IMG/VR virus record: IMGVR_UViG_3300010368_004331
Span: 1 to 25,932 of that record
Length of the DNA stretch: 25,932 nt
Origin: a virus
Direction: 5' to 3' (one strand)
The notes beneath the pieces are model-generated. The model was not told the DNA's origin, ran no database searches, and saw only the letters and a list, made by a program, of their open reading frames with translations. A program made the translations under genes and the position numbers. Below, piece after piece: positions 2 through 20,836 of the stretch. Within the stretch, counting starts at the first letter, position 1. Each line of letters begins with the position of its first letter.

Positions 2-175
2 AGCCAAACAACAACAGGCAACACAGGACGTGGTATGAGTATTTCGTTATTGTATTGTTTAGATGGTGATACTACTAAGGTTAAAGTTAGAAATAAAAAT
101 ACACTTGTTGAAGAAGAATTAACATTAGCAGAATTGTACAGTAAACTTACTGGTGCTGCTAAAATAATCGTGTGA
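2..175 (+). CDS. 17: Terminase large subunit (TerL/gp17), N-terminal fragment ending in split-intein N half (partial, cut by window edge)
   Basis: This is the reading frame open at the left edge and ending at TGA 173-175. It encodes 18 visible residues of TerL (ending GRGMSISLLY), then 39 residues starting CLDGDTTKVK. The first part matches the strand leading into the Walker B of T4-type gp17. Joined to residue 113 of the ORF at 1076, it gives SLLY-CDEFAF, the expected Walker B (hydrophobic strand plus DE). The Cys at base 56 begins an intein block A (C-L-D-G-D-T). TerL is the packaging motor ATPase/nuclease and is non-functional if broken here, so protein trans-splicing with the downstream ORF is inferred. 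The Walker A and most of the ATPase lie left of the window. Confidence 0.85.
   Translation, partial: SQTTTGNTGRGMSISLLYCLDGDTTKVKVRNKNTLVEEELTLAELYSKLTGAAKIIV
56..172 (+). other. Split intein, N-terminal half (IntN, 39 aa)
   Basis: Cys1 (codon 56-58) is the expected nucleophile, followed by LDGDT, a typical block A. The fragment stops after 39 residues, before any block B (TxxH). Block B instead lies in the downstream partner. This is the rare, atypically split arrangement, with the break just after block A, known from metagenomic TerL inteins such as AceL-TerL. Canonical split inteins such as DnaE break close to the C-terminus instead. The tail of IntN (LAELYSKL) resembles the helix/strand seen after block A in that group. 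Confidence 0.85.
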
Positions 176-1101
176 CAAGTTTGCATTTGTATAAATATTG
201 TATGAACAAAAAAATAGAACAGTTTAAAAAACGCAATCAAAAACGTAACGCACATCTCTATCAAACAGATAAAATAGAGGGTTTTGACTATATAGTATGT
301 CCCGTTTCGCAGGAGAGAGTTTCGATGGTTAAAACGTCGTATATTGAACGGGTATTAAGTATGACTGTAGACGAATATGACGCTTTGTATCCAGGTGTCA
401 GAGGTGTTAGTGAAGCAAGAAAGCAGAATATTAAAAAAGGGTTGCATCAAGTAGATCCTATAACAGGAAAAACCAAGTACGAGTTAAGTCAAGAAAAGGC
501 TAGAAAGGTATTATCAGAAGCTGACGAAAACGGCGTTTCTGGATATAAAAGAAAAGGCCAAACGACTCGCGAGACACATATGAAAAATATTGATGAGTTC
601 GGCCGAAATGGTTATTCACAACTTGCCTCAAAAGCTATTATAAAAGGAAACGCAACAAAGGCAAAAAAGGGATTAATATTAGAGCCTAGTTTTCGTAACG
701 AATATTACAGATACAAATCTGTGGTTTTATATGTTACAGAACAATTTAGAGCTGAAATAACAACAGGCTATAAAACTGGATTAGCTGGAACACCAGGTGC
801 ATATCATATTGATCATATGTTTTCGATAATGAACGGATACAAGAATCAAGTTAGTCCGATACTTATAGGAAGTAAATATAACTTAAAAATGATTCCTTGG
901 AAGGATAATTTATCAAAACATAGCTGTAGTAGTATTTCTTTAAATAAGCTACTGACTATCTCAATATATACCGAGAAGCAATCTAGACAAGAATACTTTT
1001 ATTTCTTAAATCTAATTGATCTAGATATAAAAAATAAAACATTTGTCTCCGGTGCCCATTTAATGGAAAGATTTTATGAATCAAAACTATATACCGAATG
1101 A
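172..1101 (+). CDS. Free-standing HNH-type homing endonuclease between the two split-intein genes
   Basis: This 309-residue protein (GTG start) is predicted to make double-strand cuts that spread the fractured intein locus. Residues 211-215 (YHIDH) and 234-251 (SKYNLKMIPWKDNLSKHS) form an HNH-like motif: H212/D214/H215, an Asn near 237 and a final N246/K249. Residues 38-74 (FDYIVCPVSQ..., then MTVDEYDALYP) look like the MUCR/zinc-ribbon-like DNA-binding segment common in phage homing endonucleases, although only one Cys remains. The basic, Gly/Lys-rich middle (105-165) fits a DNA-binding linker. The GTG at 172 overlaps the upstream stop (GTGTGA). An in-frame ATG at 202 is an alternative start directly behind a late-promoter box. 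The 3' end overlaps the next ORF by 26 bases. Function is inferred from motif and position. Confidence 0.8.
   Translation: MTSLHLYKYCMNKKIEQFKKRNQKRNAHLYQTDKIEGFDYIVCPVSQERVSMVKTSYIERVLSMTVDEYDALYPGVRGVSEARKQNIKKGLHQVDPITGKTKYELSQEKARKVLSEADENGVSGYKRKGQTTRETHMKNIDEFGRNGYSQLASKAIIKGNATKAKKGLILEPSFRNEYYRYKSVVLYVTEQFRAEITTGYKTGLAGTPGAYHIDHMFSIMNGYKNQVSPILIGSKYNLKMIPWKDNLSKHSCSSISLNKLLTISIYTEKQSRQEYFYFLNLIDLDIKNKTFVSGAHLMERFYESKLYTE
190..197 (+). promoter_or_regulatory. T4-type late promoter box TATAAATA
   Basis: An exact match to the T4 gp55-dependent late promoter consensus. It lies inside the first codons of the GTG-started endonuclease ORF and 4 bases before the in-frame ATG at 202. The predicted +1 is near 203, so a transcript would be leaderless for the ATG-202 start or would begin just inside it. 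No -35 is required for this class. Confidence 0.5.
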
Positions 1102-1411
1102 TGAATACGAAATACTAACACCCAACGGGTGGGAAGATTTTGAAGGAGTAATATTTAACGAAAATGCAAATAAGCATTCTCGCAAAATTTATTTTGACGA
1201 TAACAGTTTTGTAACAGCAACCAACGATCATAGATTTTTTTCTAATAAAAAAGAAATAAAAGTAATTGACTTAAAGGTAGGAGATACATTAGATTCCCAT
1301 AATACCGTTAAAAAAATAATCAAACTTGAAGATATAGTATTAGAGAATACATATGAAATTTTTAATGCCGAGAATCATGTAATAATAGCAAACGAAATTA
1401 ATTCACATCAA
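1076..1411 (+). other. Split intein, C-terminal half (IntC, 112 aa, terminal Gln)
   Basis: The segment contains block B (residues 45-55, FVTATNDHRFF, with T and H in TxxH position), block F (residues 92-103, TYEIFNAENHVI) and block G ending INSHQ followed by Cys+1 of the extein. The penultimate His111 is present, but the last residue is Gln112 rather than the usual Asn. Gln-ending inteins are known but are a minority. The N-terminal YEILTPNGWEDFEG region resembles the start of IntC in the atypically split TerL inteins. The total intein (39 + 112 = 151 aa) has mini-intein size, with no endonuclease domain inside. Confidence 0.85.
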
Positions 1412-2473
1412 TGTGACGAATTTGCATTTGTGCCACCAAACATTGCAGAGGAGTTTTGGACTTCAATATCACCTACACTGGCAACAGGTGGACGTGCAAT
1501 TATTACAAGCACGCCCAACAGTGATGAAGATACTTTTGCTTCTATTTGGAAAGATGCAGACAAGAAGTTTGATGATCATGGCAATGAGAGTGAACTGGGT
1601 GTAAATGGTTTTCATAACTTTACTGCACACTGGAGTGAACACCCTGATCGTGATGAAGAATGGAAATCTGTTGAAATTGGCAGAATTGGTGAAGAGAAAT
1701 TCCGTCGTGAATATGGATGTGAATTCCTAGTATTCGATGAAACACTTATAAACAGCATCAAACTTGCTGAGATGGAAGGCAGTCTGCCATTGCTTAATAT
1801 GGGCCAAACCAGGTGGTACAAGCAGCCTTCTCCAGAATATACATATGTTGTTGCACTTGATCCCAGCATGGGTACAGGAGGGGATTATTCAGCTATACAG
1901 GTTATAGAACTCCCTTCATATGAACAAGTTGCAGAGTGGCAACATAATACAACAGCAATTCCAGGACAGGTTCGAGTTCTTAGGGACATATGTTCTTATA
2001 TTTCTGAAACCGTTGGTTCAGCAGCAAGCATATATTGGAGTGTGGAAAACAATGGAATCGGAGAAGCATGTTTGTTAGTTATTAACGATTTTGGAGAAGA
2101 AAACATTCCAGGATTGTTTATAAGTGAACCAATAAGAAAAGGTCATGTTAGGAAGTTTCGTAAAGGATTCAACACAACTCATGGCAGCAAAATTACAGCA
2201 TGTAGTAGATTAAAAACAATGGTTGAAACTGGAAAATTAACAATTAAGTCAAGGCCATTGCTGTCAGAACTTAAAAATTTTGTTGCAACTGGTAGTAGTT
2301 TTCAAGCAAAATCAGGAACAACTGATGATTTGGTAAGTGCAATGCTGCTATCATTAAGAATGATGGCAATATTAAAAGATTGGGATCCTAGGATATACAA
2401 TACATTTACTCAAGTAGAAGCTGATGTAGACTATGAACCACCCATGCCAATCTTTATTAGTAACAATTTTTAA
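1076..2473 (+). CDS. 17: Split-intein C half fused to terminase large subunit C-terminal part (gp17)
   Basis: This is a 465-residue protein. Residues 1-112 are IntC and residues 113-465 are the rest of TerL, beginning CDEFAFVPPNIAEEFW (end of Walker B). The ATPase coupling motif STPNSDEDTF follows. The C-terminal RNase H-like nuclease shows D262 (VALDPSMGTGGDYS), E324 (WSVENNGIGEA) and D417/D418 (GTTDDLVSAMLL). Their spacing is close to T4 gp17 D401/E458/D542. The 353 TerL residues match the length T4 gp17 has after its Walker B. Splicing to the fragment ending at 175 would restore full TerL, which cuts and packages concatemeric DNA. The ATG overlaps the endonuclease end by 26 bases, and no clear Shine-Dalgarno is seen, so translational coupling is likely. 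Confidence 0.92.
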   Translation: MNQNYIPNDEYEILTPNGWEDFEGVIFNENANKHSRKIYFDDNSFVTATNDHRFFSNKKEIKVIDLKVGDTLDSHNTVKKIIKLEDIVLENTYEIFNAENHVIIANEINSHQCDEFAFVPPNIAEEFWTSISPTLATGGRAIITSTPNSDEDTFASIWKDADKKFDDHGNESELGVNGFHNFTAHWSEHPDRDEEWKSVEIGRIGEEKFRREYGCEFLVFDETLINSIKLAEMEGSLPLLNMGQTRWYKQPSPEYTYVVALDPSMGTGGDYSAIQVIELPSYEQVAEWQHNTTAIPGQVRVLRDICSYISETVGSAASIYWSVENNGIGEACLLVINDFGEENIPGLFISEPIRKGHVRKFRKGFNTTHGSKITACSRLKTMVETGKLTIKSRPLLSELKNFVATGSSFQAKSGTTDDLVSAMLLSLRMMAILKDWDPRIYNTFTQVEADVDYEPPMPIFISNNF

Positions 2474-7653: not shown

Positions 7654-8424
7654 ATGGAAAATAAAATAGTATTAGTAACTGGTGGATTTGATCCTCTCCA
7701 TAGTGGACATATTGCATACTTTAAAGAAGCAAAAAAACTAGGCAACAAGCTAGTAGTGGGTCTTAACAGTGATGAATGGTTAACTAGAAAAAAAGGCAAG
7801 CCATTCATGCCTTTTGTAGAAAGAGCATCAATTATTCAAGAACTTGCATGTGTTGATCAGGTAATTGGATTTAATGATGGTGACAATAGTGCATGCCAAG
7901 CAATTGGGGCTGTCCTTGCCACTAGCACTGGCACTGTGGTTTTTGCAAATGGTGGAGACAGAACCAATACAACAACTCCAGAACTCATTACATATGGCAA
8001 ATCCACTGATGTAGAATTTGCCTGGGGGGTTGGTGGCGAGGACAAAAAGAATTCGAGTAGTTGGATTCTAGAAGAATGGAAGACTCAAAAAACAGTACGT
8101 CCTTGGGGCTGGTACAGAGTACTTGATAAAGGTGAAAATTGGGCAGTGAAAGAGCTCACTATTATGCCTGGTAAGTCTCTATCTGATCAACGCCACATGC
8201 ACCGTTCAGAGCATTGGCATGTGGTATCTGGAGAAGTTACTTGTGATTTAGAAATGGATGGCTGGGCACCGCATACAAAAGTCGTTGGCCCTAAGCAAAG
8301 TATGGATATCGAAAAACTAATGTGGCACCGTCCATACAACGCTGGAACTGAACCTGCTAAAATTATTGAAACATGGTTTGGTGATATTTTGGCAGAAACA
8401 GATATTGAAAGACGAGAAGTATGA
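7654..8424 (+). CDS. Cytidylyltransferase-like / cupin (mannose-6-phosphate isomerase type II-like) fusion
   Basis: The protein has 256 residues. Residues 5-137 are a nucleotidyltransferase of the RfaE/glycerol-3-phosphate cytidylyltransferase type. They include GGFDPLHSGH (10-19, an HxGH motif), VGLNSDEWLTRKKG and a terminal Ser-rich NSSSW motif (133-137) in place of the usual ISTT-like signature. Residues 148-245 are a cupin resembling the ManC/AlgA isomerase domain: RPWGWYRVL, then RHMHRSEHWHVVSGE (180-194) with the metal-ligand His/Glu cluster. Activation of a sugar or alcohol phosphate plus sugar isomerisation is inferred; the substrate cannot be read from sequence. It heads the glycan island, and its stop overlaps the next ATG (ATGA). 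Confidence 0.8.
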   Translation: MENKIVLVTGGFDPLHSGHIAYFKEAKKLGNKLVVGLNSDEWLTRKKGKPFMPFVERASIIQELACVDQVIGFNDGDNSACQAIGAVLATSTGTVVFANGGDRTNTTTPELITYGKSTDVEFAWGVGGEDKKNSSSWILEEWKTQKTVRPWGWYRVLDKGENWAVKELTIMPGKSLSDQRHMHRSEHWHVVSGEVTCDLEMDGWAPHTKVVGPKQSMDIEKLMWHRPYNAGTEPAKIIETWFGDILAETDIERREV

Positions 8425-9110
8425 AAGTATTTGTAGGATGGGACAGCCGAGAAGATATAGCCTACCAAGTGTGTAAACACAGTATACTTACTAGAACTCC
8501 AGATGCAGAAGTAATTCCAATAAAACAGGATGAAATGAGAAAGCGTGGGTTATATACTCGTCCAGTGGACAAACTAGCATCAACTGAGTTTACGTTTACT
8601 AGATTTTTAATTCCTGAATTATGTAATTATACTGGATGGGCGTTGTTTATTGATTGTGATATAATACTAACAACGGATATTGCAGAATTATTTGCGCAGG
8701 CTGATGACAGGTATGCTGTGATGTGTGTCCATCATGATTATACTCCCAAAGAAGGAGTTAAGATGGACGGACAAAAACAGACAGTTTATCCCAGAAAAAA
8801 CTGGAGCAGTGTGATGTTAATCAACTGTGGGCATCCTGATAACCAGGCACTTACAGCTGATGCAGTTAATAATCCAGAATTAACTGGAGCACACTTTCAT
8901 AGATTTAGTTGGCTTGAAGACGACAAAATTGGAGGAATCAGTCATGAATGGAATTGGCTGGTTGGCGTTTATTCAGAACCTGAAGATGGGTCACCCAAGC
9001 TTATACACTATACTGAAGGCGGCCCTTGGTTTGAAAATTATGCCGACTGTGGATATGCTGATCTTTGGAATACTGAACACCAGCAAATGATAAATGATTT
9101 GTCTAAGTAA
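8421..9110 (+). CDS. Glycosyltransferase, GT-A fold (family 8-like)
   Basis: This is a 229-residue protein. The N-terminus MKVFVGWDSREDIAYQVCK and the FIDCDIILTTD motif (D78 and D80 as DxD, binding the metal and nucleotide sugar) fit a GT8/glycogenin-like transferase. Further residues such as INCGHPDN and HYTEGGPWFENY match conserved later motifs. It would transfer a sugar from a nucleotide donor to a surface glycan; donor and acceptor are unknown. It overlaps its upstream neighbour by 4 bases and its downstream one by 17. Confidence 0.78.
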   Translation: MKVFVGWDSREDIAYQVCKHSILTRTPDAEVIPIKQDEMRKRGLYTRPVDKLASTEFTFTRFLIPELCNYTGWALFIDCDIILTTDIAELFAQADDRYAVMCVHHDYTPKEGVKMDGQKQTVYPRKNWSSVMLINCGHPDNQALTADAVNNPELTGAHFHRFSWLEDDKIGGISHEWNWLVGVYSEPEDGSPKLIHYTEGGPWFENYADCGYADLWNTEHQQMINDLSK

Positions 9111-9867
9111 AAATTTAACCGACGAATATGTTAATATGTTTGCACAGGGAGCCAACCTTCCTGTGCAGGACTATAATACTGATTTTCGTGATAACCCAAT
9201 TTTAATACGCAGTATGGGGAAAAGAAAACTCATACAGTGGTGTTGGGAAAACAGCCATGATTTTTACTACATGGACAGTGGCTATATAGGAAACTATAAA
9301 AGTAATATCAACCCAAACGGGTGGAAATCATTTCACAGAATAGTTAAAAACGATGTGCAACACAGTATTATTATTGAACGTCCTGACGACAGATGGAAAC
9401 AATTAGAGTTTCCAATACAACCTCGCAAGACTGGATCACATATACTATTAGTAATACCATCAGAAAAGCCTTGCAAGTTTTATAACATTGAGTTAAATGC
9501 CTGGAAAACTGAAACTATAAATGTGATTAAACAATATACTGGCCGCCCAATTATTATAAGAGATAAGGCTGCTAGGCAAACTAGATTATCCAATACAATT
9601 TTTCATGATTTAAACAATGCCCATGCACTGGTTACATTTAATAGTATTGCAGCCGTTGAAAGTGTAGTATATGGTGTTCCAGCATTTACACTTGCACCCA
9701 CGGCTGCAGATCCTGTGTGTGATAAAAATCTTAGTAATATAGAAAATCCAACTATATACGATATGGATTATTTAAATAGTTGGGCAAATCATATTGCTTA
9801 TGGACAATTTCATATAGATGAATTCAAGGACGGATCAGCATGGAGAATATTAAATGAACGTTGTTAG
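9094..9867 (+). CDS. Capsule-polysaccharide-type glycosyltransferase-like protein (paralogue 1)
   Basis: This is a 257-residue protein resembling the C-terminal half of capsular polysaccharide (KpsS/KpsC-like) or GT-B transferases. Diagnostic parts are RPIIIRDKAARQT (about 150-165) and NAHALVTFNSIAAVESVVYGVPAF, the latter being the usual donor-site pattern where a polysaccharide enzyme warns of missing sites and selects GVP. It shares this layout with the genes at 9854 and 13500. The ATG at 9094 overlaps the upstream gene by 17 bases with no strong Shine-Dalgarno, suggesting coupling. The reaction is not determined. Confidence 0.6.
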   Translation: MICLSKNLTDEYVNMFAQGANLPVQDYNTDFRDNPILIRSMGKRKLIQWCWENSHDFYYMDSGYIGNYKSNINPNGWKSFHRIVKNDVQHSIIIERPDDRWKQLEFPIQPRKTGSHILLVIPSEKPCKFYNIELNAWKTETINVIKQYTGRPIIIRDKAARQTRLSNTIFHDLNNAHALVTFNSIAAVESVVYGVPAFTLAPTAADPVCDKNLSNIENPTIYDMDYLNSWANHIAYGQFHIDEFKDGSAWRILNERC

Positions 9868-10786
9868 TTACTTTAAGGCTGTTCCAAAAAATAATACAAA
9901 GAGTGAAAAAACAGATATGCTTCTGAATTTTATTCAAGGAGTTAATGCTGTTGGTGACAATGGTCGTGTTTATTATGGATCAGAAATTATTGACAATGAT
10001 GTTGCAATCATTCAAGGCTGGCAACATGAATTTGGAAAAAGTAGCGAGCATCTATTATTAAGAAAAGCTATAATAGATTCTCAGTTAAAAAATAACAAAT
10101 ATGTGATAACTGCTGATAGCAATTTATTTTTATATGCATCACCAAAAAACACTCCACATCATTATTTGCGATATAGTATTAATGGTGTATTTCCAGATAC
10201 TGGAAATTATTGTGATACAGAAGTAGACACCAGTCGCTGGCAACAAATCAGTAAAGATTTAAACATCAAGTTGGGTGCTACCAATTATACTGGAAAAAAT
10301 ATTGTATTGTGTTTGCAGAGAAATGGTGGATGGAGTATGGGAAAATACGATGTTCAAGATTGGATTATTAATACTGTGACTAAAATTAGAAAACACAGTG
10401 ACAGGCCAATAATAATCAGAGCACACCCTGGAGACAAAAATGCATTGCAGTATTTAAATGAAAAGAATAATAGAATAAGTCACTTGCGCAATCTATACAT
10501 ATCGCCCTTTGGTAGAGCTTTAAATGAAGATCTAATGGATGCATGGGCAGTTGTCAATCATAACAGCAGTAGTATCGTTGGACCGCTGATACAAGGGTAT
10601 CATGGATTTGTAACTGAACCATTAAAAAGCCAGTGCAGTGAAGTAACTCATACTAATTTTTGCGACATTGAAACTCCCAAAGAGTTTGATAGGCAATCAT
10701 GGTTAGAACGAATAAGTATGTTCCATTGGAATTTTAAAGAATTAGAAAATGGAGATTGCTGGAAACACATGAGGAAATATATATGA
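9854..10786 (+). CDS. Capsule-polysaccharide-type glycosyltransferase-like protein (paralogue 2)
   Basis: A 310-residue protein with the same core as its neighbours: NIVLCLQRNGGWSMGK, then RPIIIRAHPGDK, then DAWAVVNHNSSSIVGPLIQG and a terminal NGDCWKHMRKYI. The His-Pro and Asn-Ser-Ser residues sit where the other two paralogues have DKAAR/HPRCP and FNSIAAV/NWSSNPG. It overlaps the previous gene by 14 bases and the next by 4. Role in surface-glycan synthesis is inferred from family and context. Confidence 0.6.
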   Translation: MNVVSYFKAVPKNNTKSEKTDMLLNFIQGVNAVGDNGRVYYGSEIIDNDVAIIQGWQHEFGKSSEHLLLRKAIIDSQLKNNKYVITADSNLFLYASPKNTPHHYLRYSINGVFPDTGNYCDTEVDTSRWQQISKDLNIKLGATNYTGKNIVLCLQRNGGWSMGKYDVQDWIINTVTKIRKHSDRPIIIRAHPGDKNALQYLNEKNNRISHLRNLYISPFGRALNEDLMDAWAVVNHNSSSIVGPLIQGYHGFVTEPLKSQCSEVTHTNFCDIETPKEFDRQSWLERISMFHWNFKELENGDCWKHMRKYI

Positions 10787-11460
10787 AAGCATTTATAATC
10801 TGCTTGAGCAAAATAGAACCAAGTTATAAATCTGGAATAAGATTACAGAAAGAGTTAACCAGTTTTGGTATAAATGCACAACTGTTCGAAGGTTCATATG
10901 GAAACGTAATCAAAGACGTTTACATAAAAAATAAAAGAATGCATCATCCTTGGACATTCAAGGGTCCAGAAAAGCCAGTAAGTGAAGAATGGAAATTGGA
11001 ACAAAGTACACCAGGTGTAATTGGATGTTTTGATAGCCATTATAGACTGTGGGAAAAGTGTGTGGAATTAGACGAGCCCATAATGATTTTTGAAGATGAT
11101 GCACGGGTTATCAGAGAATATATGCCGGTTGAATTTGATGATGTTCTTTCTCTTGTTTTTAGCCATGAAAAGAAAATGCGTCAATATATACATTTGTTGG
11201 ACAGCCCATCAGGTGTACCAGAAGCATTGCCATATAAGCCAGCAAGTATGCCAGGTGCTGCTGGATATATTATTAAACCCCATGCTGCAAAAATTATTGT
11301 TGATGAGTTCTATAATTCGTTCTTACCAGCAGATAATGCCATAAATCAACATTTAATTAAAATTCAAATACATAGTTATATGATGGGAAAAGCAATAGAC
11401 CGTGATAAAACGGATAACAAGTCCTCTTTGATTAGAACACAATACTGGAACAAATTATGA
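10783..11460 (+). CDS. Glycosyltransferase family 25 (LPS biosynthesis type)
   Basis: The protein has 225 residues. MKAFIICLSK at the start and GVIGCFDSHYRLWEKCVE followed by IMIFEDDARV (E104/D105/D106) are the family signatures: a Ser-His loop, then the EDD metal site. PGAAGYIIKPHAAKI (about 163-177) is the usual later motif. GT25 enzymes add galactose or related sugars to lipooligosaccharide in bacteria. The ATG at 10783 is chosen over earlier in-frame codons because GAGG lies 9 bases upstream, and it gives the ATGA overlap. Confidence 0.82.
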   Translation: MKAFIICLSKIEPSYKSGIRLQKELTSFGINAQLFEGSYGNVIKDVYIKNKRMHHPWTFKGPEKPVSEEWKLEQSTPGVIGCFDSHYRLWEKCVELDEPIMIFEDDARVIREYMPVEFDDVLSLVFSHEKKMRQYIHLLDSPSGVPEALPYKPASMPGAAGYIIKPHAAKIIVDEFYNSFLPADNAINQHLIKIQIHSYMMGKAIDRDKTDNKSSLIRTQYWNKL

Positions 11461-12023
11461 AACATTTTTACGAAGAAATTGAAGGGTTTATGACCGAACG
11501 AAATTTAAATTTATTTAATATGGTTATTGACTCAGCTTATGAAAACTTTACCTGGGTAGAATTAGGATCATGGACTGGAAAAAGTGTTGCATATTGTGTC
11601 GTAGAATTACTCAATAAACCGTTGGAAAACTTTAAATTCTATTCAGTTGATACCTGGAAAGGTGCTGCTGAACATCAAGAATACGACATGGTAAAGCAGG
11701 ACACACTATATGACGTTTTTTTAGAAAATACAAAACCTGTTAAACAATACATAACTCCGTTGAGAGAATTTTCCCATGAAGCTGCAAATAATTTTGACGA
11801 TAACAGTGTTGATTTTTGTTATGTAGATGCGGATCACAGTTATGCGGGCGTAACCAAGGACTTGGAAGCCTGGTGGCCAAAAATTAAGCCAGGATGTTAC
11901 TTTGGTGGAGATGATTACACAAAAGGCTGGCCCGGAGTGCAGCAGGCTGTGAATGATTTTTTTAGTAATAAAAAAATAAAAGTAAAACGGATTGGAAGAT
12001 GTTGGCTGGTGATTAAAAATTAG
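11457..12023 (+). CDS. Class I SAM-dependent methyltransferase
   Basis: The protein has 188 residues. WVELGSWTGKSV (33-44) is the Gly-rich SAM-binding motif I, FYSVDTW follows, and VDFCYVDADHSYAGVTKDL is the post-II/metal-binding segment typical of Methyltransf_24/CmcI-type enzymes. The substrate is probably a sugar or other glycan unit, judging by neighbours. ATGA overlap upstream; the 3' end overlaps the convergent sulfotransferase by 4 bases. Confidence 0.8.
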   Translation: MKHFYEEIEGFMTERNLNLFNMVIDSAYENFTWVELGSWTGKSVAYCVVELLNKPLENFKFYSVDTWKGAAEHQEYDMVKQDTLYDVFLENTKPVKQYITPLREFSHEAANNFDDNSVDFCYVDADHSYAGVTKDLEAWWPKIKPGCYFGGDDYTKGWPGVQQAVNDFFSNKKIKVKRIGRCWLVIKN

Positions 12024-12616
12024 TATTGTTCAAATTTTAAAATATTAAAATCATCAGCGTATCGTGCATGTATTATATCCTTTTGTTGATCAGTAAGCAC
12101 AAGATTTTTCTTTTTACTTTTGTTTGCCGTTATAGTCTTTACCCCTAATTGACCAAAAAATAAATCAATATCAGACAAATTTAAGAGGTTATGTACCATA
12201 ATGTTTTTATTCATATCGGAAATAAAATAAATTTGTTGCCTGGCATGGTAGTTACACGTATTATCGTCATTAAAATCTTTGCAAATAAACTCTAAAAAAG
12301 CGTCAATGCTAATACTATTGGATTTTACATTTAACTCAGGAAACGGTTCCAATAATCCAAAATGCTTGTATAAGCTTAAAAAACGTTCATACGGATGCCT
12401 AATACATGTAAAATTTTGATATCCATTTTGCAGTGCTGTATCAAATGATATTTCAGGATTATTCCATTCTTTGTGAACCCATTTTACTTGTTTGTAAGGA
12501 TTGCTATTCTTTTTTCCAATTAATGACGCTTTGATTGTTGTGTTTGCACATTTGGGAATAGCCCAATAATTTAGCTTATAATTATTATATGACGTTATAA
12601 TATGTCTTCTATCCAT
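12020..12616 (-). CDS. Sulfotransferase family 2-like protein
   Basis: The protein has 198 residues. PKCANTTIKASL (21-32) fits the 5'-phosphosulfate-binding loop, and FTCIRHPYERFLSLY (69-83) the 3'-phosphate-binding motif (R..P..R..S.Y) of PAPS-dependent carbohydrate sulfotransferases. It would transfer sulfate from PAPS to a glycan. It overlaps the upstream minus-strand glycosyltransferase by 8 bases. The C-terminal half is poorly conserved by eye. Phage-borne sulfotransferases are uncommon, so it is worth checking. Confidence 0.75.
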   Translation of the reverse strand: MDRRHIITSYNNYKLNYWAIPKCANTTIKASLIGKKNSNPYKQVKWVHKEWNNPEISFDTALQNGYQNFTCIRHPYERFLSLYKHFGLLEPFPELNVKSNSISIDAFLEFICKDFNDDNTCNYHARQQIYFISDMNKNIMVHNLLNLSDIDLFFGQLGVKTITANKSKKKNLVLTDQQKDIIHARYADDFNILKFEQY

Positions 12617-13457
12617 GACTCCAATAGCTTTCTGACCTATTCACTATTATGTCACTGGGGTTAGATTTTCCAGTGTTTTTCCTATCGCCCTTCATGTGGT
12701 CAATCCATTTGCCCAATACTCCGTTGATCAATGGATGCCCACCTCCACCAGATTTGGCTTCACGTAGATACATTTCAGCACTGTAATCCAGTACATTTGG
12801 TGCAGTTCTTTTCATGTTGTTTACTATGTGTCCAAATACATAACTATCATGCCATTCATCTAATAAAAATATTCCATTTTCGGCATCAGTGTACATGCGT
12901 TCAAACTCTTGCAAGAATTCCTGACAAACTATATTATTCAAATTTAATCCATAAAAGCCACACTCGGGCCAGGTCTGTGATCCTTTGCCGCGACCAACAT
13001 ACGTAATCCAACTAGTTTTTGGCAATAGGTCCAAGAACTCTTCATAACTCCATGCATTGTGTACATACGTGTCAGCATCCATCCAAACACACCAATCTTT
13101 GGATCTTTCACAAGCATCAAATACTGCATAAACTTTGTTGGCAAATCTAACAGCATCCCATTTAAAAGTCTTGTTGCTGTCTTTGCGCTTGCTCAACGCT
13201 GGATCTTTGCTGATGTCACCATTGGCCTTTGGTACATCTTTCCACTTATCCTTGAATTCATTTAATTTTGGCAACGCTGTTCTTGCATCTAAAATTTTAA
13301 TACGACTGGGGTCAGGATTAGTTGGTTTACAATCTTCAGCATACACTATTAATTTAATACGTTTGTCTACTCGTCTAGCAAAGCTGTCTAAAAATCGTTG
13401 GCCATATAAAGTTAAACCACTTGGATGAAATGTTGTAACCACAGTTATTGCTGGCAT
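12609..13457 (-). CDS. Glycosyltransferase, GT-A type with DxD
   Basis: A 282-residue protein starting MPAITVVTTFHPSGLTLYGQ. DWCVWMDADTYV (121-132) gives the DxD at D127/D129. FKWDAVRFANKVY and the SGGGGHPLI/HMKGDRK segment near the C-terminus are further conserved-looking parts. It would transfer a sugar in the same pathway as its neighbours; substrates are unknown. The start is ATG at 13455-13457 with an AAAGGA Shine-Dalgarno upstream on the minus strand. It is divergent from the gene at 13500. Confidence 0.75.
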   Translation of the reverse strand: MPAITVVTTFHPSGLTLYGQRFLDSFARRVDKRIKLIVYAEDCKPTNPDPSRIKILDARTALPKLNEFKDKWKDVPKANGDISKDPALSKRKDSNKTFKWDAVRFANKVYAVFDACERSKDWCVWMDADTYVHNAWSYEEFLDLLPKTSWITYVGRGKGSQTWPECGFYGLNLNNIVCQEFLQEFERMYTDAENGIFLLDEWHDSYVFGHIVNNMKRTAPNVLDYSAEMYLREAKSGGGGHPLINGVLGKWIDHMKGDRKNTGKSNPSDIIVNRSESYWSHG

Positions 13458-13468
13458 AGTTTGTCCTT

Positions 13469-13476
13469 TGTAAATA
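13469..13476 (+). promoter_or_regulatory. Late-promoter-like box TGTAAATA
   Basis: Seven of eight to TATAAATA in the divergent intergenic gap, with predicted +1 near 13482 and AGAGG (13485-13489) then an ATG at 13500. On the minus strand the same gap holds TATAAT (13485-13480) without a good -35. Confidence 0.35.
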
Positions 13477-13499
13477 GTAATTATAGAGGTATTTAACAG

Positions 13500-14351
13500 A
13501 TGAAATTTAGTCTATGGACACAATATGGCGCAAACAATTCCAAATCAGTATTTGATGCATTTGCTGGTAGTTTGCGTGATGCTGGGCATGAAGTCAGTTT
13601 TAATGACATGGATTCAGACGTTGCAGTTATATGGAGTGTGTTATGGCATGGTAGAATGGCCGGTAATAAAAAAGTATGGGACCATTTTAGAAGTAAAAAC
13701 AAACCAGTAATTGTTTTGGAAGTTGGTGGTATCAAGCGAGGAATTACTTGGAAGGTGGCTCTTAATGGCATAAATCGAGATGCATTTTTTACTGAACCCG
13801 GCAACACTTCTGACAGGGCAACAGCAATGGGTTTAAATCCGCTTCCATGGAAGTCGAATGGCGAATTTATTTTAATTTGTACACAGCACACCAAGAGTCT
13901 ACAGTGGGCACGTCAACCAGATATTAATAAATGGTTGAATACCATTATTACTGACATAAGAAAATATTCAAAAAGACCTATCCTTGTGCGTCCTCATCCT
14001 AGGTGTCCAATAAAGGACATCAACGGAATGTACAAACATGTGTATCATCAAAATCCAGTTTTAATTAAAAATAGTTATGACGATTATGATATTAATTTTG
14101 ATAATATACATGCTATAATAAATTGGAGCAGTAACCCAGGACCACAAGCAGTGATGGCAGGAGTGCCTGCATTTGTGAGCACTTCATCAATTGCATATGA
14201 AGTGGGAAATGACATTGATTTTGTGCATGATATTGACTCTCCATTACTGCCTGACAGGACGCAATGGATCAACGATTATGCATGGACTGAATACACTGTA
14301 GATGAAATATCCAATGGCCTACCACTGAATAACTTGACAACAAACTTATAG
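13500..14351 (+). CDS. Capsule-polysaccharide-type glycosyltransferase-like protein (paralogue 3)
   Basis: This is a 283-residue protein. It shares with the genes at 9094 and 9854 a C-terminal core: RPILVRPHPRCP, then HAIINWSSNPGPQAVMAGVPAF. Its N-terminal half differs (MKFSLWTQYGANNSKSVFDA, with LEVGGIKRGITWKVA). The HPR motif is the best preserved of the three. AGAGG at 13485-13489 supports the ATG. Its 3' end carries the promoter of the next gene (14334-14362). Confidence 0.65.
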   Translation: MKFSLWTQYGANNSKSVFDAFAGSLRDAGHEVSFNDMDSDVAVIWSVLWHGRMAGNKKVWDHFRSKNKPVIVLEVGGIKRGITWKVALNGINRDAFFTEPGNTSDRATAMGLNPLPWKSNGEFILICTQHTKSLQWARQPDINKWLNTIITDIRKYSKRPILVRPHPRCPIKDINGMYKHVYHQNPVLIKNSYDDYDINFDNIHAIINWSSNPGPQAVMAGVPAFVSTSSIAYEVGNDIDFVHDIDSPLLPDRTQWINDYAWTEYTVDEISNGLPLNNLTTNL

Positions 14352-20092: not shown

Positions 20093-20271
20093 AAACACGT
20101 ATTCTAAAAGATGGAACCTCTGCAACAGAACTTTCCCATGCAATAACCATGGAAGTTTATACACGCTGCCCTGGTAAATACAAATTAGTAGATATGGAAA
20201 CTGGTGAAGAATATATAGGAAATTGGACGGAGACTTCCAGCAAACACTGGAAAAAAATAAACAATGCCTGA
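20089..20271 (+). CDS. Small unknown protein
   Basis: A 60-residue protein, MKTRILKDGTSATELSHA to HWKKINNA, with a GEEYIGNWTE centre. The start overlaps the deformylase stop (ATGA) and the end overlaps the next gene by 8 bases, which supports it as real. No family recognised. Confidence 0.55.
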   Translation: MKTRILKDGTSATELSHAITMEVYTRCPGKYKLVDMETGEEYIGNWTETSSKHWKKINNA

Positions 20272-20836
20272 TATTGACATTGATTTTTCAGACAGAGACA
20301 TTATACTGAGTAAAATTGTTCACAGATCAGCGAGCATAGATCCTGGTACAAAACATAAGACTGGGATTTATGTTACTGAAATTCCACACAATCCGGTGAA
20401 TAATATTTCAACAATTAATTACAAAGATGCTGAACATCGTGGTTATTTTAAATTAGATTTTTTGAATGTTAGCATTTACAAAGACATACGTGATGAAGCC
20501 CACTTGACAGATTTAATCAACACTGAGCCAATGTGGGATCTATTGGAGTCTGATGACTTTGTAAACCAAATATTTCAAATAAACGGGCATGGGTACTTGT
20601 TGAGGAAATTAAAACCTAAAAATTTAGAACAACTTGCATCCTGTTTGGCGATTATTAGACCAGCTAAAAAGCACCTATCTGATTCTGATTGGAGCACCAT
20701 TGAGAATGAAGTTTGGAAAAAACCAGATAATAACGAATATTACTTTAAAAAATCACATGCCTTTTCATATGCAATGGCAGTGATTGTGCATATGAATTTA
20801 ACTGTAGAAAAGTTGATGCAAGAATCTAATCTTTGA
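20264..20836 (+). CDS. Condensed DnaE-like (DNA polymerase III alpha-type) protein
   Basis: A 190-residue protein whose segments follow the order of the DnaE palm and thumb/finger region. PDIDIDF (2-8) matches the catalytic PDFDVDF loop, giving D3 and D5. Next come HKTGIYVTEIP (31-41, like KHAGGVVIAP), KLDFLNV (63-69; D65 is the third Asp), FQINGHGYLLRKLKP (104-118), LASCLAIIRPAKKHL (124-138) and FKKSHAFSYAMAVIVHMNL (161-179). It lacks the PHP domain, the GSGAGS loop, and the C-terminal OB/tau regions. I recognise similar short DnaE-like proteins in marine phages. Whether it polymerises is unknown. It overlaps its neighbours by 8 and 11 bases. Confidence 0.72.
   Translation: MPDIDIDFSDRDIILSKIVHRSASIDPGTKHKTGIYVTEIPHNPVNNISTINYKDAEHRGYFKLDFLNVSIYKDIRDEAHLTDLINTEPMWDLLESDDFVNQIFQINGHGYLLRKLKPKNLEQLASCLAIIRPAKKHLSDSDWSTIENEVWKKPDNNEYYFKKSHAFSYAMAVIVHMNLTVEKLMQESNL

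What the first reader, a model, noticed from the sequence alone, without database searches (positions are those of the whole stretch)
2..2473. Fractured terminase gene with split intein inside Walker B
The essential large terminase is broken into two ORFs that each carry half an intein. The rejoined extein reads SLLY-CDEFAF, restoring Walker B. The break falls in the most conserved catalytic motif of the ATPase. A free endonuclease gene lies between the halves, so the locus has all parts of a 'fractured gene' homing unit like those described from marine metagenomes, but in TerL at Walker B. The CEFL site (around 1720) that I recall as the AceL-TerL insertion point is intact here, so this is a different insertion site.
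Basis: partly seen in the sequence, partly recalled or inferred. Interest (0 to 1): 0.85.

Follow-up and report, generated by a model that had tools for sequence, protein, structure and literature searches.

The report
Split intein fractures phage packaging motor
A virus of bacteria has its DNA-packaging motor gene cut in two by a mobile element, each half carrying half of a self-splicing protein that should rejoin the motor, and the element appears to spread between viruses and to carry a decoy copy of its own landing site in front of its DNA-cutting gene.

Summary
Confirmed. The large terminase (TerL) is split into two ORFs, each carrying half of an atypically split intein, with an HNH-like endonuclease gene (HEG) between them. 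The junction (…SLLY|CDEFAF…) lies inside Walker B. It is not unique: about 90 IMG/VR contigs carry an intein here, and so does the cultured Salicola phage SCTP-2, whose TerL exists only as three scattered genes. Empty-site alleles are 99.8% identical to the window downstream. Contiguous relatives prove that the halves form one intein, and the element's synonymous divergence is far below that of its flanks, so it is mobile. It is a sister class to AceL/GOS-TerL, at another site.

(1) An 18/20 copy of the homing-site half (DEFAFV DNA) sits on the N-fragment stop codon beside TATAAATA, just before the HEG; it is constrained only while the HEG is present, which resembles the I-TevI autorepressor operator. 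(2) The block [nuclease domain + IntC] has been swapped repeatedly (HNH with …Q|C, EDxHD-like with …TKN|C) behind a shared [IntN + copy + DNA-binding domain]. (3) Relatives break TerL at up to three sites, giving four pieces. Trans-splicing, cleavage and repression are untested.

The parts
2..55 (+). 3' end of TerL N-extein (...GNTGRGMSISLLY), truncated by the contig edge
   Evidence: Identical protein sequence precedes CDEFAF without interruption in L008-L010
56..172 (+). IntN, 39 aa, Cys1, block A CLDGDTT; stop codon TGA 173-175
   Evidence: Aligned in six relatives, contiguous with IntC in L005
171..190 (+). Copy of the first 20 nt of the C-extein (homing-site half mimic / proposed HEG operator), 18/20 identical to 1412-1431; supplies the N-fragment stop codon
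   Evidence: 0.02 such matches expected by chance; present at the same place in nearly all HEG-bearing relatives of the core clade
190..197 (+). TATAAATA, T4-late-promoter-like box abutting the copy
   Evidence: not enriched in the window as such; conserved next to the copy in relatives
202..1101 (+). Homing endonuclease gene: N-terminal DNA-binding region about 202-621, HNH-like nuclease domain about 628-1089 (GAYHIDHMFS...NLKMIPWKDNLSKH); GTG at 172 is an alternative start
   Evidence: AF2 model mean pLDDT 89 with a beta-beta-alpha arrangement at 201-239; fold matches to Cas9 HNH domains not significant
1076..1411 (+). IntC, 112 aa, overlaps the HEG end; block B T..H, penultimate His, terminal Gln
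   Evidence: profile match to CatC 6dsl
1412..2473 (+). TerL C-extein starting at C+1: rest of Walker B (CDEFAF), coupling motif, RNase H-like nuclease
1412..1431 (+). Original of the direct repeat: C-extein side of the presumed homing site
1718..1729 (+). CEFL codons: uninterrupted here; occupied by a second split intein in relatives (L085, L091, L098, L128, L141, L144, L154)

Best explanation
This is a mobile 'fractured gene' element in TerL of a T4-like tailed phage. TerL is made as two proteins. The 39-aa IntN on the N half and the 112-aa IntC on the C half associate, form an intein fold and trans-splice (Cys1, block B Thr/His, penultimate His, terminal Gln, Cys+1), giving an unscarred Walker B (inferred from anatomy and relatives, not shown). 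The HEG between the halves binds and cuts intein-free TerL DNA at SLLY|CDEFAF, and repair copies the whole element (IntN-HEG-IntC) into the recipient (mobility shown by sequence comparison; cutting inferred). A copy of the C-extein half of the homing site, placed on the N-fragment stop codon beside a TATAAATA box and directly before the HEG, is most likely a site the endonuclease binds without cutting. It would let the endonuclease shut down its own promoter, as T4 I-TevI does (inferred). Relatives recombine the element in two modules, [IntN + copy + DNA-binding domain] and [nuclease domain + IntC] (shown).
For: Halves of one intein: contiguous in-frame homologues at the same site in L005, L102 and L114-L116. 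Catalytic residues in 39/39 relatives: Cys1, TxxH, CDE. Purifying selection on IntN, HEG and IntC: dN/dS 0.05-0.45. Mobility: clean empty alleles L008-L010, 99.2-99.8% identical over 4.9-6.7 kb from exactly nt 1412 but only about 82-86% over the 49-55 nt upstream. Element dS of 0-0.3 against flank dS of about 2 (WIN/L004, L006/L109). Functional reconstitution: SCTP-2, an infectious phage (PMC6518143), has TerL only as genes 534, 267 and 224. Operator: 18/20 repeat with 0.02 expected, in the same place across both nuclease types. The copy does not track its own C-extein (14.11 vs 14.08 of 17, p 0.48). Changes in out-of-frame copies by codon position are 5/0/26 with the HEG present, against 4/3/3 where the HEG is lost or truncated. 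The same design occurs at the CEFL site before unrelated HEGs (L118, L139, L185, L128). T4 I-TevI/II/III have homing-site-like operators overlapping late or middle promoters (PMC2988022).
Against: No splicing, binding, cleavage or transcription was measured. The terminal Gln (not Asn) could slow the last step. TATAAATA is not enriched in the window (2 found, 2.8 expected), and the ATG lies only 4-5 nt after it, so a late transcript would be nearly leaderless. Not every HEG has a recognisable copy (L120, L127-L129, L131-L133, L194; MIJ3 PolB also lacks one). Only 55 nt of upstream flank are available for the window. The nuclease assignment rests on motifs; Foldseek and PDB profile searches gave no significant match.
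Confidence: 0.85

Rival explanations
1. The C-extein copy before the HEG is only a scar of the event that fractured the gene, kept by descent, with no regulatory role.
For: It sits exactly at the IntN/HEG border and in some relatives (L093, L094, L138, L214) is still read in frame as a DEFAFV tail of the N fragment.
Against: It diverged freely from the local C-extein (p 0.48) yet keeps codon positions 1-2 while out of frame (5/0/26), and decays when the HEG is lost (4/3/3). It arose again at the CEFL site with other HEG families. Where the target reads CDELAFV, a copy reads DNLAFV (L203).
Confidence: 0.3
2. TerL is inactivated here (pseudogene) and an intact TerL elsewhere does the packaging.
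For: The window is a 26-kb fragment, so the rest of its genome is unseen.
Against: All pieces are open and under purifying selection. No intact TerL exists in complete SCTP-2 or in 141/151/79-kb contigs with split TerL.
Confidence: 0.04
3. The two halves work as separate subunits without splicing, as described for a T-even reductase gene split by a HEG (cited in PMC10448857).
For: HEG-split genes with two functional peptides are known.
Against: The break lies inside the Walker B strand. Both halves carry conserved intein catalytic residues under selection, and contiguous inteins occur at the same site.
Confidence: 0.04
4. The insertion is an RNA-level intron.
For: HEGs of this kind are common in group I introns.
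Against: No Rfam match at E<=1 in 1-2600. Intein blocks are in frame with the exteins, and L005 reads through.
Confidence: 0.01
5. Assembly chimera.
For: The window's 55-nt upstream flank differs from its near-identical downstream relatives.
Against: The same order IntN-HEG-IntC recurs in dozens of independent assemblies and the HEG/IntC order in isolate SCTP-2.
Confidence: 0.02

Closest known systems
AceL-TerL / GOS-TerL / Cat atypically split inteins (CEFL site of TerL)
   Same: Same host protein, short IntN (25-37 aa there, 39 here) and long IntC; IntC profile matches CatC 6dsl
   Different: Different insertion site (Walker B SLLY|CDEF rather than CEFL); terminal Gln; CatC is closer to the CEFL-site inteins found here than to the Walker B class
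'Fractured genes' with split inteins and free-standing HEGs (Dassa et al. 2009, cited in PMC6892783; paper itself not held)
   Same: Gene halves + intein halves + HEG between
   Different: HEG here is HNH-like; EDxHD-like versions share its DNA-binding region; homing-site mimic before the HEG not seen described in the papers I could search
Salicola phage SCTP-2 TerL (MF360958 genes 534, 267, 224, with HEG gene 225)
   Same: Same Walker B break with IntN/IntC, related HEG beside the C part
   Different: N part relocated 39 kb away on the other strand; also a Walker A split intein and a cis intein; longer IntN
MIJ3 PolB split intein with HNH HEG (PMC6892783)
   Same: Jumbo phage, HNH HEG between halves of an essential gene
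   Different: Different gene, canonical long IntN / short IntC, no homing-site copy before the HEG
T4 I-TevI / I-TevII / I-TevIII operators (PMC2988022)
   Same: Homing-site-like sequence at a phage promoter just upstream of the HEG (15/20 nt there, 18/20 here)
   Different: Group I introns and GIY-YIG/HNH there; split intein here; binding not tested here
Mycobacteriophage TerL inteins (PMC5050341)
   Same: TerL inteins cluster in the ATPase domain near P-loop and Walker B
   Different: Those are contiguous inteins; here split with a separate HEG

Membership tests
Fractured gene / naturally split intein | Two ORFs whose exteins rejoin into one conserved protein | tested here: met
   Empty-site alleles L008-L010 read the joined sequence; T4 gp17 alignment
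Fractured gene / naturally split intein | Complementary intein halves from one intein | tested here: met
   Contiguous homologues L005, L114-L116
Fractured gene / naturally split intein | Free-standing endonuclease gene between the halves | tested here: met
   HEG 202-1101; 28 HNH-type and 11 EDxHD-like relatives in the same position
Fractured gene / naturally split intein | Protein trans-splicing | not testable with these tools
   Inferred from residues and from SCTP-2 viability with fragmented TerL only
AceL/GOS-TerL intein allele | Insertion at the CEFL site | tested here: not met
   CEFL uninterrupted at 1718-1729; insertion at Y|CDEF
AceL/GOS/Cat atypically split intein superfamily | Short IntN with block A only; IntC carrying blocks B, F and G; homologous IntC | tested here: met
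HNH homing endonuclease | H-N-H catalytic motif in a beta-beta-alpha fold | tested here: inconclusive
   Conserved D204/H205, N227, N236 and predicted beta-beta-alpha, but no significant fold or profile match; 28% identity to a T-even ORF annotated 'homing endonuclease'
EDxHD homing endonuclease (relatives only) | VSR-like catalytic core | tested here: inconclusive
   Conserved FWDLTIP...EYQS.AWH.DP...DY.KAR motif; no significant fold/profile match
I-TevI-type autorepressor operator | Homing-site-like sequence at the HEG promoter, constrained with the HEG | tested here: met
   promoter activity itself not tested
I-TevI-type autorepressor operator | Endonuclease binds it and represses transcription without efficient cleavage | not testable with these tools
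   Needs purified protein and a reporter
Mobile element by homing | Occupied and empty alleles; element younger than flanks | tested here: met

The most novel reading that the evidence does not exclude
A two-module homing system. A shared front module (IntN + homing-site mimic + DNA-binding domain) pairs with exchangeable back modules (nuclease domain + IntC), so that nuclease chemistry and half of the intein are traded as one unit. The endonuclease represses its own late promoter, and with it possibly the downstream TerL C-half, by binding a decoy of its own target. This would couple selfish-element control to assembly of an essential packaging motor.
Probability: 0.45. Interest if true: 0.82.

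Novelty: new variant of a known kind. Interest (0 to 1): 0.74.

Why it matters
It shows a TerL broken at its catalytic motif in many phages, with a natural collection of split, contiguous, HEG-less and empty alleles, including 99.8%-identical empty/occupied pairs and an isolated phage with a three-gene TerL. One IntN is paired in nature with two IntC classes (53% DNA identity in L013/L152), a direct prediction for promiscuous split-intein tools. The homing-site mimic makes the question of how fractured-gene endonucleases are regulated testable with a gel shift and a reporter, and suggests that I-TevI-style self-control evolved repeatedly outside introns.

Tried and rejected
Group I intron: no Rfam hit. 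Copy refreshed by gene conversion from its own C-extein: rejected (p 0.48). TATAAATA as a common promoter in the window: not enriched. Single-protein PDB search with the contiguous L005 intein gave nothing useful, and the IntN profile found no intein; the IntC profile did. Foldseek on both HEG models: no significant hit. MIJ3 PolB as a second example of the copy: negative. CEFL-site HEGs of the DUF7487 type (L085, L098, L144, L194, L214, L215): no copy. Intein family in 84,980 bacterial/archaeal genomes: none confirmed. The Dassa 2009 paper is not held. My first codon-position tally was biased by its search pattern and was redone without it. Searches failed on coordinates or file names and were redone or dropped.
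Full report
WHAT IS THERE. The window is a complete IMG/VR record of 25,932 bases. Its first 2.5 kb read: TerL N-extein end (2-55, cut by the contig edge), IntN (56-172, stop 173-175), an endonuclease ORF (ATG 202, stop 1101; an upstream GTG at 172 is possible), IntC (1076-1411, overlapping the endonuclease end) and the TerL C-extein (1412-2473). The N half matches TerL family phrog_5989 and the C half phrog_36964, Terminase_6C and T4 gp17. Cys+1 replaces the residue before the DE of Walker B (T4 MIYIDECAF, here LLYCDEFAF). Walker A cannot be seen here, but the closest relative, L004, has it in the same N fragment.

ONE INTEIN IN TWO PARTS. The IntC profile finds solved inteins, CatC (consensus of AceL/GOS-TerL) first, E 5e-9. 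In L005/L102 and L114-L116 the same intein is contiguous and in frame at the same site. Cys1, block B TxxH and Cys+1 are present in all 39 relatives compared; the last intein residue is Gln in the HNH-associated class and Asn in the other. IntN, HEG and IntC are under purifying selection, dN/dS 0.05-0.45.

MOBILITY. L008-L010 are empty alleles: SLLYCDEFAF without a break. The window is 99.8% identical to L008 over 6.7 kb starting exactly at nt 1412, while the 55 nt upstream are 82% identical, consistent with insertion plus co-conversion of the upstream flank (the flank is too short to prove it). A second pair, L011/L014, is 96% identical downstream. Between diverged phages the element is much younger than its surroundings: dS about 0.2-0.3 in the element versus about 2 in the C-extein for window/L004, and 0-0.1 versus about 2 for L006/L109. 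Among the 80 best TerL loci most sites are empty.

HOW COMMON. An IntC profile scan and an HEG profile scan gave about 90 contigs with an intein at this Walker B site, most of them split with a HEG; some are split without a HEG (L089, L119, L125, L137, L139, L148, L154). The family was not found in 84,980 prokaryote genomes.

IS THERE AN INTACT TERL AS WELL? In three large contigs (141, 151 and 79 kb) with split TerL only fragments were found. In the complete 440-kb genome of Salicola phage SCTP-2, TerL exists only as three genes: 534 (ends RQLGK|C...IntN), 267 (IntC|TAVA...SLLY|C...IntN) and 224 (IntC...VSQ|CDEF..., with a further cis intein), spread over about 214 kb. SCTP-2 is an isolate reported to infect two hosts (PMC6518143), so the pieces must be rejoined or work together. 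None of the SCTP-2-citing papers I opened mentions inteins in its terminase; the MIJ3 paper reports only the PolB intein.

THE SITE. Relatives show three TerL sites for related split inteins: Walker A (GK|TT), Walker B (Y|CDE) and CEFL (|CEFL). L128, L141 and L154 use all three, so TerL is in four pieces. CatC is most similar to the CEFL class, and a review describes a +2 Glu in its C-extein (PMC11766414), which fits CEFL.

THE ENDONUCLEASE. It has an N-terminal region shared by all relatives and a C-terminal HNH-like domain (H-I-D-H...N...N...K-H). The AF2 model is confident (mean pLDDT 89) and shows a beta-beta-alpha unit, but fold and profile searches gave no significant hit, so 'HNH' rests on motif and on weak similarity to T-even ORFs between genes 18 and 19, one annotated as homing endonuclease. 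In 11 relatives the nuclease half is instead an EDxHD/VSR-like domain by motif.

MODULE EXCHANGE. On the IntC tree the nuclease type changes once (support 100/100); on the tree of the DNA-binding region it must change at least six times on supported branches. Nuclease type and intein end are perfectly linked: HNH with a final Q (28/28), EDxHD-like with TKN (11/11). The clearest pair is L013/L152: 99.5% identity over 1,652 nt from TerL start through IntN and the copy, continuing to about nt 375-390 of the HEG, then about 35-45% through the nuclease domain and 53% in IntC, then 98.8% over 3,492 nt from C+1. Hence [nuclease + IntC] moves as a block, and one IntN pairs with two IntC classes.

THE HOMING-SITE MIMIC. 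Window 171-190 (TGTGACAAGTTTGCATTTGT) copies 1412-1431 (TGTGACGAATTTGCATTTGT), 18/20; 0.02 such matches are expected in the window. It supplies the N-fragment stop codon, abuts TATAAATA (190-197) and ends 11 nt before the HEG ATG. It is in the same place in nearly all HEG-bearing core relatives of both nuclease types. It does not follow its own C-extein. Among 17 distinct out-of-frame copies, changes by codon position are 5/0/26 although nothing is translated in that frame; in four loci that lost or truncated the HEG they are 4/3/3 (Fisher p 0.003, ignoring relatedness). The simplest reading is a site bound by the HEG's DNA-binding domain, which tolerates the wobble positions of its coding target. 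At the CEFL site, HEGs of other families (HNH-NUMOD3, GIY-YIG-like by eye) are also preceded by a copy of their own C-extein start, on the M-fragment stop and before a TAAATA-like box (L118 20/27, L185 17/27, L128 16/27, L139 weaker). In L197-L204, where the target reads CDELAFV, the copy reads DN(L/V)AFV. T4 I-TevI, -II and -III have homing-site-like operators on their promoters; I-TevI binds its operator as tightly as its homing site, cuts it about 100-fold less and represses transcription (PMC2988022). I therefore favour autorepression; a passive scar is the main rival.

SHOWN AND INFERRED. Shown: anatomy, one intein in two parts, mobility, module exchange, the conserved mimic, absence of intact TerL in SCTP-2. 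Inferred: trans-splicing, DNA cutting at the empty site, HEG binding to the mimic, promoter function, and any effect on TerL C-half expression.

LIMITS. Contigs are fragments from metagenomes; related loci are not independent; the window's upstream flank is 55 nt; papers of subscription journals, including the original fractured-gene and AceL/GOS-TerL papers, could not be read, so whether a Walker B split TerL intein was listed before is not certain.

Noticed in passing
L002/L003/L224 (MF360958 genes 224, 267, 534): SCTP-2 TerL is encoded by three genes scattered over about 214 kb, with split inteins at Walker A and Walker B plus a cis intein; its Walker B IntN is unusually long (about 96 aa) and seems to overlap the IntC.
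   Followed up: partly
L128, L141/L143, L154/L155: TerL in four pieces: split inteins at Walker A, Walker B and CEFL in one gene.
   Followed up: partly
L006 301-1125 and L007 3614-4438: A second TerL-like ATPase ORF (275 aa, own Walker A/B) directly upstream of the split TerL, ending ...FRKEYECEI* at the CEFL position.
   Followed up: no
L013 3487-5109 and L015 324-1946: The TerL N fragment also holds a large contiguous intein at Walker A (RQMGK|ALSNSTP...THN|TTCA).
   Followed up: no
L118 4837, L139 2535, L185 5609, L128 3552: CEFL-site HEGs of other families are preceded by a copy of the CEFL C-extein start on the upstream stop codon.
   Followed up: partly
L159 4995-5324: Related intein inserted near Walker B but 3 residues upstream (ILSHN|CLVLDEYAH), in one continuous ORF.
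   Followed up: no
window 20264-20836: A 190-aa ORF with a DNA polymerase III alpha-like PDIDIDF motif and a weak finger-domain match (E 6e-4): much shorter than DnaE.
   Followed up: no
window 7654-14351: Sugar-related block: cytidylyltransferase fused to a cupin/mannose-6-phosphate isomerase C-terminal domain, family 8 glycosyltransferase, other glycan-like ORFs and a sulfotransferase-like ORF on the minus strand (12020-12616).
   Followed up: no
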